Assembly: GCA_025352825.1 (NCBI GenBank)
Contig: JANXSG010000068.1
Location: forward strand, 1-36,319
DNA length: 36,319 nt
Source: Chthonomonadaceae bacterium
GTDB taxonomy: Bacteria; Armatimonadota; Chthonomonadetes; Chthonomonadales; Chthonomonadaceae
Direction: 5' to 3'
Shown here one piece after another: positions 3,963 through 27,630 of the stretch (its first letter is position 1; every line of letters begins with the position of its first letter). The position numbers and the translations under genes are program-made. The notes under the pieces are model-generated. The model saw only the letters and a program-made list of their open reading frames with translations. It had not been told where the DNA came from and did not search any database.

Positions 3963-4586
3963 CTACTTCTTGGCGGAAAGCACTTTCATGACTTCATCGC
4001 GTCTAGCAGCTATCTCAGCCTGAGACATGAGCTTGACCTGTTCAAATGTTAAACCTCCGCCGCCTGAATTTTCACGCCCTGGGTTCCCCACTGCCCCGCC
4101 GCCAGCGCCTACCAGATAGGGCTTGCGCTTCGCGAGGTCGGTCAGTAATTCCACGATATTCGTGGGCTTATCGCCGTCGTAGATAATGGCGTCCTTCTTC
4201 AGCAGATCGTATGCCGCTTCTTCGTCGACAATCCCGAGTGCGCGTGCCTGACGCTCTACTTCGGACTGGACTCGGACGGCTTTTAGTTCTGTTTCGGTTG
4301 CGGTGGCTCGTGCAGTTGCGTCGAGAGCATCCTTTTTCAGCTTCTCCTGCTCGGATAGCTGAGCGTCTTCAAGTACCTTCAGCTTGTCTTTCAGCTGCTG
4401 ATTCTCAACACGCCTGGCTGCTGCTTCGCTGCGCACATTCGCAAGATCTCGCTCTATTTCCGCTGTGGTACGTGCTCCTGGAGGTGCCTGACCTGGGATC
4501 TCGCCCCCCGCTGCGGGCGGAGGAGTTGTTTGCGGCGCCTGTCCGCTGTTACCTTTTGGGTCCTGCCCGTTGCCTTCTTCTGGCAT
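3963..4586 (-). CDS. Capsid scaffolding protein
   Basis: A 207-residue hydrophilic protein. A Pro/Gly-rich N-terminus (GQAPQTTPPPAAGGEIPGQ) is followed by a long charged coiled coil (residues about 42-105, ERDLANVRSEAAARR... KLKVLEDAQLSEQEKLKK). Then comes an ALGIVDEEAAYDLLKKD segment, a Gly-rich linker (GAGGGAVGNPGRE) and a basic helical tail ending MKVLSAKK. This domain order is typical of internal scaffolds that direct coat assembly and bind coat through the C-terminal helix. It immediately precedes the coat gene. Upstream of the start lie two terminator-like hairpins rather than a visible promoter. Confidence 0.88.
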   Translation of the reverse strand: MPEEGNGQDPKGNSGQAPQTTPPPAAGGEIPGQAPPGARTTAEIERDLANVRSEAAARRVENQQLKDKLKVLEDAQLSEQEKLKKDALDATARATATETELKAVRVQSEVERQARALGIVDEEAAYDLLKKDAIIYDGDKPTNIVELLTDLAKRKPYLVGAGGGAVGNPGRENSGGGGLTFEQVKLMSQAEIAARRDEVMKVLSAKK

Positions 4587-4652: not shown

Positions 4653-4692
4653 ACAAAACGCCTCCCTCGGTTTTGTGTCCAAGGGAGGCGTT
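4653..4692 (-). terminator. Intrinsic terminator A after the tRNA unit
   Basis: A perfect 11-bp stem: AACGCCTCCCT at 4657-4667 and AGGGAGGCGTT at 4682-4692, with a 14-base loop. On the minus strand it is followed by a T-rich tract (TTTTGTTGTTT). It would end transcripts coming from the tRNA promoter. It also lies in the path of any late transcript running from the MuF-type gene into scaffold and coat. Confidence 0.65.
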
Positions 4693-4813: not shown

Positions 4814-4888
4814 GAGCGGGCATCGGATTCGAACCGACTATTTCGAGTTTATGAGGCTCGCGTAGTAATCCATTTCTACTCGCCCACT
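4814..4888 (-). tRNA. tRNA with anticodon CAT (Met or Ile2 type)
   Basis: The minus strand folds as a full cloverleaf. The acceptor is AGTGGGC (4888-4882) with GCCCGCT (4821-4815). The D arm is GTAG/CTAC around a loop containing GG. The anticodon arm is CGAGC-CTCATAA-ACTCG, giving anticodon CAT with T33, and its last pair is C-A. The T arm is GTCGG-TTCGAAT-CCGAT. CCA is not encoded. The sequence cannot tell elongator Met from lysidine-modified Ile. It has its own promoter just upstream and is flanked by complementary 9-base segments (4810-4818 and 4893-4901). Confidence 0.9.
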
Positions 4889-4904: not shown

Positions 4905-4933
4905 AGTATACACACGTCTTAGAATATTGTCAA
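4905..4933 (-). promoter_or_regulatory. Consensus sigma-70 promoter for the tRNA
   Basis: On the minus strand a perfect -35 TTGACA (4933-4928) is followed by a 17-base spacer and a -10 TATACT (4910-4905). Transcription would start about 7 bases later, near 4898, ten bases upstream of the mature tRNA 5' end. Both hexamers are identical to those of the early promoter at 17,474-17,502. Confidence 0.8.
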
Positions 4934-4987: not shown

Positions 4988-5016
4988 TTGCATTATTATA
5001 AAAGGTGGAGTATAAT
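4988..5016 (+). promoter_or_regulatory. Consensus sigma-70 promoter of the plus-strand moron
   Basis: TTGCAT (4988-4993), a 17-base spacer, and TATAAT (5011-5016), about 40 bases before the start codon at 5059. It points opposite to the surrounding late operon, so these genes can be expressed independently of the lytic cycle. Confidence 0.8.
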
Positions 5017-5058
5017 TAGAATGTAAGAACAAACAACAACGAAACGGAAACAGAGACA

Positions 5059-5454
5059 ATGGACACTGTTATTGAAATCACAAACAACGAAAACGAGAAA
5101 GAAACACTCGATTTTTCAGACTTCTCCAACTTCCATGACGAAACTTGTGCAATTTTCACATCATGCGAAACGCCTAGTCGTAGGCCGGATTTTATATCTG
5201 AAAGCGGATCGGAATATTGGGATAATGGAGATAGTGTGATCCGTCGTGCAAATCACTGGGGTAAGGATATAGCATCGTGCAGGTGGGAATTAGACGATAG
5301 ACTTGTTGGAAGTCGTCAGAGAGTATGCGTTAAACGAATAGCGCAAATGTCAACAGGGTATTGCCCCTACTCGGAATTTCATACAAATGCTTATTGGTTT
5401 TTCGAAACACGGAGACCAATATTAGATGCCTATTATTTGGCATGTTCAAACTGA
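5059..5454 (+). CDS. Moron protein 1, unknown function
   Basis: A 131-residue soluble protein with no signal peptide or membrane segment. The N-terminus is acidic and Asn/Glu-rich (EITNNENEKETLDFSDF). The core reads SGSEYWDNGDSVIRRANHWGKDIASCRWEL: an aromatic-rich block (SxYW, then VIRxxNHWG, then ASCxW) that I recall from small uncharacterised proteins of mobile elements, without a known activity. It contains several Cys and Trp residues. It is the first gene behind a strong plus-strand promoter and is AT-rich compared with the head genes on both sides, which suggests recent acquisition. Anti-phage or host-modifying roles are possible but not shown. Confidence 0.75.
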   Translation: MDTVIEITNNENEKETLDFSDFSNFHDETCAIFTSCETPSRRPDFISESGSEYWDNGDSVIRRANHWGKDIASCRWELDDRLVGSRQRVCVKRIAQMSTGYCPYSEFHTNAYWFFETRRPILDAYYLACSN

Positions 5455-5466
5455 AAGGGAATCATC

Positions 5467-5772
5467 ATGCTTTCATCATTCGTTAAAAATATTGGTCAGT
5501 TCCATCCTTGCGTAGCATACGTTGCGAAAGTAACAAATTTTACCGCATATGATGGTGTGGGAGTAGTTATTCTTTCCCCTAACATGGATTCTTTTGAATA
5601 TACTCAAAATACTCCTGATGGTTGGCAAGCCGATGATGAACATACTTATCCATTACCAGCAGAAATGGACGCAGCATTCCCAGGAAAACTACATGCAATA
5701 ATTTCCTGCGGTGAGATTGTCATTGACCATGGAACTTCCGCATCAGCATATCTTAATTTAACGAGAGGCTAA
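5467..5772 (+). CDS. Moron protein 2, unknown function
   Basis: A 101-residue protein beginning MLSSFVKNIGQFHPCVAYVA, starting 12 bases after moron 1 with AAAGGGAA upstream. It has beta-strand-like stretches (GVGVVILSPNMDSFEY, LHAIISCGEIVIDHG) and an acidic middle (GWQADDEHTYPLPAEMDAAF). No motif is recognised. Its tight spacing with 5059-5454 and with 5776-6003 suggests one plus-strand operon, and its AT-rich composition matches gene 1. Confidence 0.7.
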   Translation: MLSSFVKNIGQFHPCVAYVAKVTNFTAYDGVGVVILSPNMDSFEYTQNTPDGWQADDEHTYPLPAEMDAAFPGKLHAIISCGEIVIDHGTSASAYLNLTRG

Positions 5773-5775
5773 CAA

Positions 5776-6003
5776 TTGACTGAAACCAAACCAAGAAAAC
5801 GCGCCCCAGGCGGCGGTAGGAAATCCCTGCCGCCTAGCGAAAAGAAACGTCGCATCGAACTGCATGTAAATCCATCTGTTGCAGCTTATCTCGAAGCAGA
5901 GGATCAACCTAAAGGATTGGAACGATCTCGAATAGCAAGGCGAAGGAAACAAGAGGCAGCCGAACTTCTCAGGCAGGCCAAAATGGAATCGAAGTTCATT
6001 TGA
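5776..6003 (+). CDS. Small basic protein, possible ribbon-helix-helix DNA binder
   Basis: Starts at TTG 5776 with GAGAGG seven bases upstream. The 75-residue product is very basic, with N-terminal KPRKRAPGGGRKSLPPSEKKRR. It then has RIELHVNPSVAAYLEAED, which resembles the strand-helix start of RHH (CopG/Arc-like) proteins, and a basic helix ending AKMESKFI. Its start (TTGACTGAA) and both termini resemble those of 21287-21478, so the two may be distant paralogues. It may regulate the moron. The RHH fold is an inference. Confidence 0.65.
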   Translation: MTETKPRKRAPGGGRKSLPPSEKKRRIELHVNPSVAAYLEAEDQPKGLERSRIARRRKQEAAELLRQAKMESKFI

Positions 6004-6112
6004 AACATTACGCTGGTGAAGCCAGCCCCTTATAAGATTGTGGTAAAATATTCGCATGAACTGGAAACCACACATTAGATTCACAGTACCCCGCACTCAT
6101 AGGGAGTTCGAA

Positions 6113-6295
6113 TTGGAAAATCAAAAATACAACGGGCATATTGAAGTCAAACTTACTGAGGATCAATTGAAACACCTTCAGGGTATATTCAAGCCTTTAA
6201 CAGGTTTTACTGAATGGCCTCTTTTAAAGACTTCGCATACATCGACCGTCCCCACTTCGCCGACTGCTTCTCACCAACAAAGTCCCTTAGAGTAA
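6113..6295 (+). CDS. Putative small protein at the end of the moron
   Basis: The open frame begins at ATG 6056, but TTG 6113 has a better ribosome-binding site (AGGGAG, six bases upstream) and starts MENQKYNGHIEVKLTEDQLK. Only the first 30 or so residues look protein-like. The last 29 codons lie antisense to the 3' end of the MuF-type gene and read as Ser/Thr/Pro-rich filler. It may be a truncated gene, the boundary of the insertion, or not expressed. Confidence 0.4.
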   Translation: MENQKYNGHIEVKLTEDQLKHLQGIFKPLTGFTEWPLLKTSHTSTVPTSPTASHQQSPLE

Positions 6296-7238
6296 CCTCG
6301 CCAGTTCTATAAGCCGACGCAGCGGCCTTACCTAAAATCCGCTCCTGCATGGAAACACTCTGCTTCGCAAACCACTCTTCGCCAGGCTGGATATCGGCAC
6401 GTGTTTCCTCCACACCATCAATACCCAGATCCTTCCAGCTTTTCGTCTCCGGAGCACATGAACATCTGCAATTTATATGGCTGTCCATCTGTTCGCTCAA
6501 CTCATGAAACGTGCCATTCATCGCAATGCACATCGGGCAAGTCCGCCCGCTCAGATCCGCAATCCAAACCCAGCCGGCAATCACATCCGAATTCGCCCTG
6601 TAACTCTCGATGCTGGAATCCCGATAAACCCGCATCACCTCCGTGCGGCTGATCGTCAATGCCCTCGTAAGATTGCCGCCCATCTCATGCCGCATCGCCC
6701 GCGCCATCCCTGCCGGATTCTGCCCCATCGCCACACCATTGAGCAAAATCTTTTTAATCGACGCGCTGCCGTCCCGCCCGAACTGCTCCAGCAGACTCCG
6801 CAGCGGCTTCCCATCGCCCAGGTTGCCAACCATATGTTCAAAAGCCCCGACTGGCAAATGGCTGAAGCTCGCGCCAACTCCAGAACGGTTCGAATCTATA
6901 CTCAACAAAGTCAACTGTTGAGCGTGATGCCTGGCCGCCTCCACCGCCTCGCGCTGCTGAACCGTAATCGTGCCCTCAGCATAATTTGCGAATACATTCA
7001 GCCGCTCTTCCGTCTGCTTCTGTAATGTCTGCAGCCTGCCTTCCTGAAATAACCAGGCCGGCGAAACCACTTCACCATTCTTCCGTGCTGTCTCCATTTT
7101 GGTGGTGACCGCATCCAGATCAGCACGGATACGCTGCCAGACATCTCCATATACACGCACCATCTCTGTAGCTGCTCTTCTTTCCTTAGCAAGCAGCTCA
7201 GCGCGAAACAACTCGGCCATATCATGAAGTAACGCCAC
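6207..7238 (-). CDS. MuF-type head morphogenesis protein (SPP1 gp7-like)
   Basis: A 343-residue minor head protein. The C-terminal half carries the MuF signature: SRTEVMRVYRDSSIESYR, then GWVWIADLSGRTCPMCIAMNG, then a Cys-rich loop HINCRCSCAP. The N-terminal half is helical (ELFRAELLAKERRAATEMVR). MuF proteins bind the portal, are packaged in small copy number, and may assist DNA release. It lies directly downstream of portal and the HExxH protein. The last codons overlap, antisense, with the end of the plus-strand frame 6113-6295. Confidence 0.9.
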   Translation of the reverse strand: MALLHDMAELFRAELLAKERRAATEMVRVYGDVWQRIRADLDAVTTKMETARKNGEVVSPAWLFQEGRLQTLQKQTEERLNVFANYAEGTITVQQREAVEAARHHAQQLTLLSIDSNRSGVGASFSHLPVGAFEHMVGNLGDGKPLRSLLEQFGRDGSASIKKILLNGVAMGQNPAGMARAMRHEMGGNLTRALTISRTEVMRVYRDSSIESYRANSDVIAGWVWIADLSGRTCPMCIAMNGTFHELSEQMDSHINCRCSCAPETKSWKDLGIDGVEETRADIQPGEEWFAKQSVSMQERILGKAAASAYRTGEVTLRDFVGEKQSAKWGRSMYAKSLKEAIQ

Positions 7239-25923: not shown

Positions 25924-26376
25924 CTATTGCCCGCTCTTGTATGCCCTGATCACATCATCCACATTTGTGATTACAAATCCCACTCCAAACAAAAGCTCAG
26001 CCGGACTCTGCAACCGTGTAGCAAGCGCTGTCAGGTTAGCGTTAGTGAAAGGTGCAGCTGATGATGGCCAGAGAATGTTGATCCATGCCTGGACGTCTGA
26101 ATCGCCGACATCTACATTTCCAGAAGTCGCATATATGCCCACCTGCTGAAGCTGTGTGGTAGTCAATGTTTGCAATTCGGTCGGTTTGATCTCTGCCTTG
26201 AATGCTGCACTATCTATAGCCTCATGCTGAATGGAAGGCAGTTTTGAAGTCGGAGTATTCAGCAGATTCATGACACCGTCCCAGTTGACAGGAGTCGCAT
26301 TGATTAATCCGGAATATCCTATTGAAGATGGATCCGTCTTCAATTCTGTCTGCAATGCCGCATAATTTATAGTCAT
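25924..26376 (-). CDS. Tail-region protein, unknown
   Basis: A 150-residue helical protein (MTINYAALQTELKTDPSSIG; NWDGVMNLLNTPTSKLPSIQ; HEAIDSAAFKAEIKPTELQT; PAELLFGVGFVITNVDDVIR). It starts at ATG 26376, sharing a base with the stop of the 51-aa gene. The LKTDPxxxGYxxxxxxxxxxxxxLLN pattern recurs in phage tail-region proteins without a known role. Confidence 0.7.
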   Translation of the reverse strand: MTINYAALQTELKTDPSSIGYSGLINATPVNWDGVMNLLNTPTSKLPSIQHEAIDSAAFKAEIKPTELQTLTTTQLQQVGIYATSGNVDVGDSDVQAWINILWPSSAAPFTNANLTALATRLQSPAELLFGVGFVITNVDDVIRAYKSGQ

Positions 26377-26531
26377 TAATATGTTCTCCGGATAAGGTCA
26401 TCAAGCTTTTTATTCAAGATATCTACCTTTTTATTGGTGTCTGTAATGTGGTTTACGACCGATAATATAGCCGTTACAATGGCCTTCGTATCGGTAGAAA
26501 CAGGTATCGGTTCTGGTAAAAGATTGCTCAA
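26376..26531 (-). CDS. 51-aa tail-region peptide
   Basis: A short gene from TTG 26531, with AGGAGG 10 bases upstream that overlaps the previous stop codon. It ends at TAA 26376-26378, overlapping the next ATG (TAATG). The peptide begins MSNLLPEPIPVSTDTKAIVT and ends with a coiled-coil-like stretch (HITDTNKKVDILNKKLDDLI). Both junctions are typical of real overlapping phage genes. Function unknown. Confidence 0.65.
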   Translation of the reverse strand: MSNLLPEPIPVSTDTKAIVTAILSVVNHITDTNKKVDILNKKLDDLIRRTY

Positions 26532-26545
26532 ATTATTAATGCCTC

Positions 26546-26914
26546 CTAACCTTTATTATTTTTTTCAACGTCACTCAAACGTCGATATAGTTCTGATTTT
26601 TCGTTTGCCCATTGCTGTTTCTCCAGTTGCAAAGATACATTCAACTGTAGAATTTTGTGATATTCCTGTTGCAATGTCCTCATCTGTTCCTGCAATCCTT
26701 TATAGTCATCTTTCAATTCATTAAAACGAGTCTTAATGGTATCAATTTCGCTTTGTCGAAGCTCCGCAGCTGATTTCCATCCCTCTGCGTTGCTTTTATT
26801 GATCTCAACAATACCTTTGCGCTGCGAGTATAATAGAAACGTCACTGCGCTAATCATAATCCCAATCGCGAGTACAGCATTCCAAAAATTAAATATATCG
26901 AATCTCAATGTCAT
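26546..26914 (-). CDS. Membrane-anchored coiled-coil protein
   Basis: A 122-residue protein with one N-terminal membrane helix (FWNAVLAIGIMISAVTFLLY, residues about 10-29) and a long coiled coil (about 40-118, SAAELRQSEIDTIKTRFNEL; LQEQMRTLQQEYHKILQLNV; EKSELYRRLSDVEKNN). The shape resembles an inner-membrane spanin, but a spanin partner and lipoprotein are not seen. It lies in the tail-fibre cluster. Another possible role is in the late membrane or holin stage. Confidence 0.7.
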   Translation of the reverse strand: MTLRFDIFNFWNAVLAIGIMISAVTFLLYSQRKGIVEINKSNAEGWKSAAELRQSEIDTIKTRFNELKDDYKGLQEQMRTLQQEYHKILQLNVSLQLEKQQWANEKSELYRRLSDVEKNNKG

Positions 26915-26973
26915 AATTCCCCTCTCATAACAGGAGTCACAATGTCGTTGAATTTTGATGATTGATTATCATC

Positions 26974-27630
26974 TTAGACATCCGCGCCGTAACGCACAAC
27001 GTTAGTCCCATCACAATATAAAGGTGCTCGTTTCGTCTGGGCAACTATTATGCCTGTACCTGATGTAGTCTTGAAAGTAATTGTGAAAGCGCCAGTCGTA
27101 TTGTTATAAATAATGAAATCTTGAACTATTGGATTGATCGTCACATTGATGTTTCCAGTGAGTAATCCTGTAAACTCCAATATCTTATTTGAGGCCTCGG
27201 CATCGGTTAACGTCACATTCGAGCCTCCGGCAACGCTCTTTGGCAGTCGCGAGACACCTGCTCTTGTGCCTGCATTCGCTGCAGCGCCAGTCCAGATCGG
27301 GGTCAGCACATTGTAACAGCAGACAACACCGCCAAATCCCGAATTCTGCACCGTCACTGCCTGGCCACCAGTTGACATATTGATTACCCATGTGATCTTG
27401 AGCAGCGGAGTAGGAATAATCACAGTCGCGGCAGTCGTCAGCGCGCCTGTCAACACAATCAGCCCAGCCTTACACTGAGATTCCGTGAGTGTCTGGCTGC
27501 CATTAACAATACCAATGCTAATAAATCCAGAAAAATTATCTATATCCGTCAGAGCCTGATTTACAGTAATCTCTTTGCTTGACTGAGCTGCCTGAAGCGG
27601 TGTTAAATCTAAGTTTGGCGTGTTTGGCAT
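26974..27630 (-). CDS. Tail fibre-like protein
   Basis: A 218-residue protein. The N-terminus (NTPNLDLTPLQAAQSSKEIT; VNQALTDIDNFSGFISIGIV) is typical of short phage fibre/tail proteins that begin with a trimerisable helix. A Thr/Gly-rich beta-repeat part follows (LIVLTGALTTAATVIIPTPL; KILEFTGLLTGNINVTINPI; FKTTSGTGIIVAQTKRAPLY). Its start overlaps the hub gene stop at 27630, so the two are likely co-translated. Confidence 0.65.
   Translation of the reverse strand: MPNTPNLDLTPLQAAQSSKEITVNQALTDIDNFSGFISIGIVNGSQTLTESQCKAGLIVLTGALTTAATVIIPTPLLKITWVINMSTGGQAVTVQNSGFGGVVCCYNVLTPIWTGAAANAGTRAGVSRLPKSVAGGSNVTLTDAEASNKILEFTGLLTGNINVTINPIVQDFIIYNNTTGAFTITFKTTSGTGIIVAQTKRAPLYCDGTNVVRYGADV

What the first reader, a model, noticed from the sequence alone, without database searches (positions are those of the whole stretch)
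4988..6295. AT-rich plus-strand moron inside the head operon
Between the MuF-type gene and scaffold there are three or four genes on the opposite strand with a consensus promoter. The first two have no recognised family and are AT-rich. Independent promoters plus insertion in a late operon are typical of morons that change the lysogen, including anti-phage functions. This is the best candidate for an undescribed activity here.
Basis: partly seen in the sequence, partly recalled or inferred. Interest (0 to 1): 0.7.

Follow-up and report, generated by a model that had tools for sequence, protein, structure and literature searches.

The report
Phage cargo cassette with ejected-effector-type domain
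A virus of bacteria carries a small backward-facing gene cassette among its shell genes; its first gene is a free-standing copy of an undescribed protein domain that other phages attach to proteins likely shot into the host with their DNA, so it probably acts inside the bacterial cell.

Summary
The island is real. Between the MuF gene (6207-7238, minus) and scaffold gene (3963-4586, minus) lie plus-strand ORFs A (5059-5454), B (5467-5772), C (5776-6003) and a doubtful D (6056-6295). A and B are AT-rich and have relatives elsewhere; C and D do not. The promoter is half as claimed: perfect -10, weak -35.
A contains a small all-beta domain with no match in Pfam, NCBIfam, PADLOC or the PDB (only PHROG 6629, function unknown). 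I compared 40 copies (30 clusters). In other phages the domain is fused to the C-terminus of a MuF protein and of a portal protein, lies in a 2131-aa polyvalent protein with an ADP-ribosyltransferase domain, or sits free beside terminase/portal or lysogeny genes. B has two relatives, both in prophages, in genes oriented opposite to neighbouring phage operons.
Best reading: a moron cassette whose lead gene is a free-standing version of an effector-type domain that related phages put on virion proteins, acting in the cytoplasm (counter-defence or host modulation). Kinship and carriers are shown; expression, activity and target are not. An anti-phage role is possible but untested.

The parts
5059..5454 (+). 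ORF A, 131 aa: free-standing copy of an undescribed all-beta phage domain (residues about 24-80 are the core)
5128..5295 (+). conserved core of the domain (PDxxSxSGSxYW....VIRxx[ND]HWG...SCxWxL)
   Evidence: own match 5125-5295
5467..5772 (+). ORF B, 101 aa: small accessory family with two relatives in prophages of the same phylum
5776..6003 (+). ORF C, 75 aa (TTG start), small basic protein; ribbon-helix-helix-like only by eye; no family match
6056..6295 (+). ORF D, 79 aa, doubtful; its last 89 nt are antisense to the MuF gene
4988..5016 (+). promoter-like TTGCAT-17-TATAAT in front of ORF A (perfect -10, weak -35)
   Evidence: read; not listed
4905..4933 (-). promoter-like TTGACA-17-TATACT, 11 of 12, in front of the tRNA gene
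4814..4888 (-). tRNA-Met (anticodon CAT), not a copy of a tRNA elsewhere in the held genome
4657..4692 (-). terminator-like hairpin with 14 pairs, between the tRNA gene and scaffold on the late strand
6207..7238 (-). MuF minor head protein, short form (82 aa after the MuF match); flanking gene
3963..4586 (-). scaffold protein; flanking gene

Best explanation
The island is a moron cassette (A-B-C, perhaps D, next to a tRNA gene and a terminator) in the head operon of a tailed phage with an integrase. Its lead gene, A, is a free-standing copy of an effector-type domain that other phages attach to proteins placed at the portal and likely ejected with the DNA. Most likely A is made from its own promoter, in the lysogen and/or early in infection, and acts in the cytoplasm by binding a host target, as counter-defence or host modulation. 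B and C would be co-transcribed helpers, C perhaps a small DNA-binding regulator. Shown: the ORFs, their composition, the kinship of A and B, the carriers of the A domain and the layout. Inferred: expression, ejection of the fused forms, cytoplasmic action, and the target, which is unknown.
For: The A core recurs in 40 compared copies, 30 clusters at 70% identity, with R..xxHW in 40 of 40. It is fused to the C-terminus of a MuF protein (L046, PF04233 E 9.9e-15, between SPP1-type portal and scaffold) and of a portal protein (L039, PF04860 E 6.1e-43). It follows a Phage_min_cap2 (MuF2) gene in frame after one TGA, without a usual start codon (L035). It sits in a 2131-aa protein with ART-PolyVal (L100, PF18760 E 2.8e-19). 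The best named structural match is a 'Minor capsid protein' of 596 aa (E 5.9e-9). Free-standing copies lie beside terminase or portal genes (L025, L045, L093, L098) or lysogeny genes (Porphyromonas prophages; L102). B relatives sit in oppositely oriented genes of two other prophages. Papers (passages read): MuF proteins are portal-associated and carry C-terminal effector domains (PMC5576092; PMC11699363); domains of phage polyvalent proteins are thought to be packaged and injected (PMC5512222).
Against: No expression data. No catalytic signature, no solved fold, no target. Most clusters are free-standing and many lie in large phages with no head gene in view. Four clusters lie in Erysipelotrichaceae MAG contigs without obvious phage genes in the stretches I listed (L028, L031, L034), so the domain is not strictly phage-borne. 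The window copy has A-N where most copies have S-D, so it could have lost activity. The -35 element is weak.
Confidence: 0.5

Rival explanations
1. Toxin-immunity reading: the domain is a toxin module of the MuF polymorphic toxin kind; A is an orphan toxin copy and B, 12 nt downstream, its immunity partner.
For: C-terminal position on MuF and portal proteins. Small ORFs directly follow the L046 fusion (63 aa) and the L039 fusion (64 aa). Passages of PMC5576092 describe small ORFs behind MuF toxins as putative immunity genes.
Against: A and B do not co-occur: B found no match in any A-bearing locus fetched, and its relatives stand with other neighbours. No known toxin family matches. The other small ORFs behind fusions are unrelated by eye; they were not compared by program.
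Confidence: 0.15
2. Anti-phage or superinfection-exclusion gene: A/B expressed by the lysogen block other phages.
For: Moron layout. Family members lie in lysogeny modules of Porphyromonas prophages and L102.
Against: No PADLOC match. The domain is also attached to virion and polyvalent proteins and present in large phages, which fits offence better than defence.
Confidence: 0.2
3. Virion accessory: the domain is a structural or portal-proximal part (cement, DNA-end binding), and the window copy is a displaced head gene.
For: Fusions to portal and MuF and the position next to scaffold.
Against: Opposite strand and own promoter-like site in the window; free copies next to integrase or repressor genes; copies in bacterial contigs; an embedded copy in an ART-polyvalent protein.
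Confidence: 0.12
4. Decaying insert: A-D is a foreign fragment that is not expressed.
For: Weak -35, doubtful D, A-N in place of S-D, no close relatives.
Against: A and B frames are intact and longer than shuffles give; C starts 3 nt after the B stop codon.
Confidence: 0.1

Closest known systems
MuF polymorphic toxins (Jamet et al. 2017, PMC5576092, passages read)
   Same: The A domain is the C-terminal extension of a MuF1 protein (L046) and lies in frame behind a MuF2 gene (L035)
   Different: In the window A is a separate gene on the other strand; no known toxin domain; the window MuF protein has no long extension
Polyvalent-protein domains of phages (Iyer et al. 2017, PMC5512222, passages read)
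   Same: The A domain shares a 2131-aa protein with ART-PolyVal (L100) and occurs both alone and embedded
   Different: It matched no Pfam model convincingly; whether the paper's own supplementary inventory holds it could not be checked
PHROG 6629 (function unknown)
   Same: 11 of 13 core sequences match it, best E 1.3e-12
   Different: The window protein itself matches weakly (E 0.0019, residues 53-79 only); no function is given
Prophage morons
   Same: Extra genes of deviant composition with their own promoter-like sequence inside a late operon
   Different: Comes with a tRNA gene and a terminator; lead gene belongs to a family that other phages build into head proteins

Membership tests
Moron (phage accessory gene) | Base composition deviates from the neighbours | tested here: met
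   G+C 39.5-41.2% against 48.6%; third-position G+C 24.5-35.6% against 55-62%
Moron (phage accessory gene) | Own promoter and terminator | tested here: inconclusive
   Perfect -10, 3/6 at -35; no strong plus-strand terminator; the strong terminator is on the late strand
Moron (phage accessory gene) | Absent from the same site in related phages | tested here: inconclusive
   No A-D match and no tRNA in 13 loci with related capsid genes. In L064-L070 the portal-scaffold interval was listed and holds late-strand genes (output cut, so L067/L068 seen in part); these are distant (MCP 46-50%) and do not match the window MuF, so no clean empty site
Moron (phage accessory gene) | Expressed in the lysogen | not testable with these tools
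   needs RNA-seq
MuF polymorphic toxin | Effector domain C-terminal to a MuF domain | tested here: not met
   In the window A is a separate plus-strand gene; met only in relatives L046 and, with a TGA between, L035
MuF polymorphic toxin | Toxic activity neutralised by an adjacent immunity protein | not testable with these tools
   needs expression tests
Phage polyvalent-protein domain | Occurs embedded with other effector domains in large packaged proteins | tested here: met
   For the domain family: L100 with ART-PolyVal. Packaging itself not tested
PHROG 6629 | Profile match over most of the protein | tested here: inconclusive
   E 0.0019 over 27 residues for the window protein; 11 of 13 core sequences match
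Known anti-phage defence systems (PADLOC) | Match to a PADLOC profile | tested here: not met
   0 families for A-D at E<=1
tRNA (4814-4888) | Cloverleaf and Rfam tRNA score above gathering | tested here: met
   ARAGORN Met(CAT); RF00005 30.7 against 29 bits; folding z only -1.34

The most novel reading that the evidence does not exclude
The domain is a new, widespread class of phage-delivered host-takeover or counter-defence module that moves between three delivery modes: fused to portal or MuF proteins, embedded in polyvalent proteins, and as a free moron in prophages. The window's A-B-C cassette is a lysogen-expressed version with its own partners.
Probability: 0.3. Interest if true: 0.75.

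Novelty: new variant of a known kind. Interest (0 to 1): 0.5.

Why it matters
Domains that phages attach to portal and MuF proteins are a rich source of proteins that act in the first minutes of infection. This one is spread over phages of very different hosts and sizes, matched no curated family model here, and exists in minimal free-standing form, which makes its function directly testable by expressing a 131-residue protein.

Tried and rejected
Ribosome modulation factor: the C-terminal half of A gives RMF at E 1.5. Rejected: not significant, and the shared 'CPY' falls in the last strand of the A domain, where relatives read ECPYEEF, ECLYEEF or YCYYEDF; Pfam shows no RMF.

AcrIIA18: best VIA-align row for the L102 model, Z 2.6, 54 residues, rmsd 3.3 (Foldseek E 5.5). 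Rejected as noise: Z is far below 8 and profile or sequence searches do not list it. For the window model the best row is 4m1x, Z 2.2. No PDB match at E<=0.001; this does not prove a new fold.

phrog_6629 in 11 genomes of the phylum and 14 control genomes: nothing. Direct scans with A alone found no relative in viral or genome contigs. A was absent from 60 other genomes, and the A3 profile gave two weak hits, one broken by a stop and one very short, in 290 others, not counted. B in phage and plasmid records: none; B and its two-row profile in viral contigs: none. A in plasmids: none. B hits L076 and L077 (E 0.007-0.008) lie in unrelated large frames and were dropped; so were C hits (L079, L080, L081) and the D hit (L083, inside a large glycosyltransferase-like frame). 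One core sequence had a chance-level Pfam match (SH3-B_UBE2O, E 0.021). Flanking inverted repeats that would mark an inversion: none convincing. tRNA as an integration scar from the host: no copy, only 15-base matches and one 82% match of about 31 bases. Terminal overlap of the contig: none.

Paper searches that found nothing on the domain: 'SDHWG' (1 unrelated paper), 'phrog_6629' (0 papers), (nothing used).

Caveat on counts: conservation of VIRxSDHW is inflated because three scans used that motif. The scan with another motif shows variants VRRLSDHW, VYRMSNHW, VVRGSNHW and VIRQANHW. The 40 copies leave out second fetches of the same contigs (L014-L024, L026, L027, L043, L044, L048, L049, L095, L096) and phage hits H3, H4, H6, H7, which were not fetched.

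Full report
What is there. The window is one 36,319-base contig of a 4.87-Mb draft genome and reads as a tailed phage with integrase, repressor-like genes, terminase, portal, MuF, scaffold and capsid genes (the integrase, repressor and terminase labels are by eye). The late genes run on the minus strand. Between MuF (6207-7238) and scaffold (3963-4586) four ORFs run on the plus strand: A 5059-5454, B 5467-5772, C 5776-6003 and D 6056-6295. A and B are longer than shuffling allows (7 of 500 and 0 of 500) and AT-rich, especially at third positions. D ends inside the MuF gene in antisense and is doubtful. The promoter-like TTGCAT-17-TATAAT has a perfect -10 and a weak -35; the scanner does not list it.

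On the late strand, directly beside the island, are an 11/12 promoter-like site (4933-4905), a tRNA-Met(CAT) gene (4814-4888) and a 14-pair hairpin terminator (4692-4657). The tRNA is not a copy of one elsewhere in the held genome. The two promoter-like sites are divergent, so tRNA and A-B-C could be one inserted block about 1.6 kb long (inference). None of 13 loci with related capsid genes holds this tRNA or A-D. Those relatives are distant and differ in MuF as well, so a clean empty site was not seen.

ORF A. Pfam, NCBIfam and PADLOC give nothing; PHROG 6629 is a weak match. tblastn in phage records finds 8 records, all under 60% identity: Eggerthella phage LE2-3, four Porphyromonas and three Riemerella phages. 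From these an alignment and motif scans were made. In all, 40 copies fall into 30 clusters at 70% identity, and R..xxHW is kept in 40 of 40. AlphaFold2 gives a confident all-beta core: block pLDDT 84-96 over residues 21-80 of the window protein, and 92-97 over residues 11-60 of a relative. PDB searches find nothing. The viral library finds a 699-aa unnamed protein, a 596-aa 'Minor capsid protein' and a Flavobacterium phage protein.

Carriers of the A domain. (i) MuF1 protein with the domain as its C-terminus, between an SPP1-type portal and scaffold (L046). (ii) Portal protein with the domain as its C-terminus (L039). (iii) A MuF2 gene that contains a Hint/intein match, followed in frame, after one TGA, by the domain without an ATG, GTG or TTG in front (L035). 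(iv) A 2131-aa protein with an ART-PolyVal domain (L100). (v) A 1037-aa protein four genes after the portal gene of Eggerthella phage LE2-3, which also has an intein-like stretch. (vi) A gene directly after TerL with an RNase H-like C-terminus (L036). (vii) An 837-aa protein of a 146-kb phage contig, the only other copy with the A-N variant of the window (L094). Free copies lie near terminase or portal genes (L025, L045, L093, L098), near integrase, repressor or recombinase genes (Porphyromonas, Riemerella, L102), and in Erysipelotrichaceae MAG contigs (L028-L034). By this tally 7 of 30 clusters are fused to, or in frame with, another protein. The window, L046, L039, L035, L006, L036, L025, L045, L093 and L098 (10 of 30) lie near head or packaging genes. 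Many flanks are short, so both are lower bounds; several neighbours (L093 TerL and portal, L098 TerL) are named by eye.

ORF B. Its profile finds three members in 291 genomes of the phylum: the window and two others. Both others are in prophages (phage genes named by eye). In G223 B is in a three-gene cassette on the strand opposite to its neighbours, before the terminase. In G176 it lies behind a 151-aa gene, divergent from a lysis and terminase operon. No A relative was found beside them. So A and B look like two exchangeable accessory genes rather than an obligate pair.

Mechanism. Papers (passages read) say that MuF proteins sit with the portal, that their C-terminal extensions include toxins followed by small presumed immunity ORFs (PMC5576092), that a MuF fusion has tested antibacterial activity (PMC11699363), and that phage polyvalent proteins are thought to be packaged and injected (PMC5512222). 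In several phages the A domain occupies the same positions as those effectors. The simplest explanation is that it acts inside the host cell: some phages deliver it with the DNA, while this phage and others express it as a free gene. Binding through the conserved aromatic, R and H surface is inferred. An anti-phage role is possible but nothing found here favours it over counter-defence.

Limits. No expression data, no target, no solved fold, no close relative with and without the island. Conservation counts are biased by the motif scans, as told under Tried and rejected. Host taxonomy was not established.

Noticed in passing
4814-4888 minus and 4657-4692 minus: A tRNA-Met(CAT) gene with its own promoter-like site and a strong terminator inside the head operon, upstream of scaffold; late transcription must pass or restart here.
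   Followed up: partly
L035:2640-2999: In this phage contig a MuF2 gene with an intein-like stretch ends in TGA and the A domain follows in the same frame without a usual start codon: readthrough, recoding or an error.
   Followed up: partly
L036:3802-4545: The A domain is fused to an RNase H-like domain (PF13456, E 9.2e-6) directly after TerL.
   Followed up: no
L050:1166-1540 and 4176-4460: A 244.7-kb phage contig carries two A-domain genes about 3 kb apart.
   Followed up: no
L028-L034: Erysipelotrichaceae MAG contigs carry A-domain genes; the listed neighbours (L028, L031, L034) look chromosomal rather than phage, possibly domesticated copies.
   Followed up: partly
window 26250-27000: A second AT-rich dip (37-38% G+C) inside the late region, around a 122-aa coiled-coil-like ORF (26546-26914 minus).
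   Followed up: no
window ends: No terminal overlap, but gene order looks circularly permuted and a 132-codon minus-strand frame spans the joined ends, so the contig may be a whole phage genome.
   Followed up: partly
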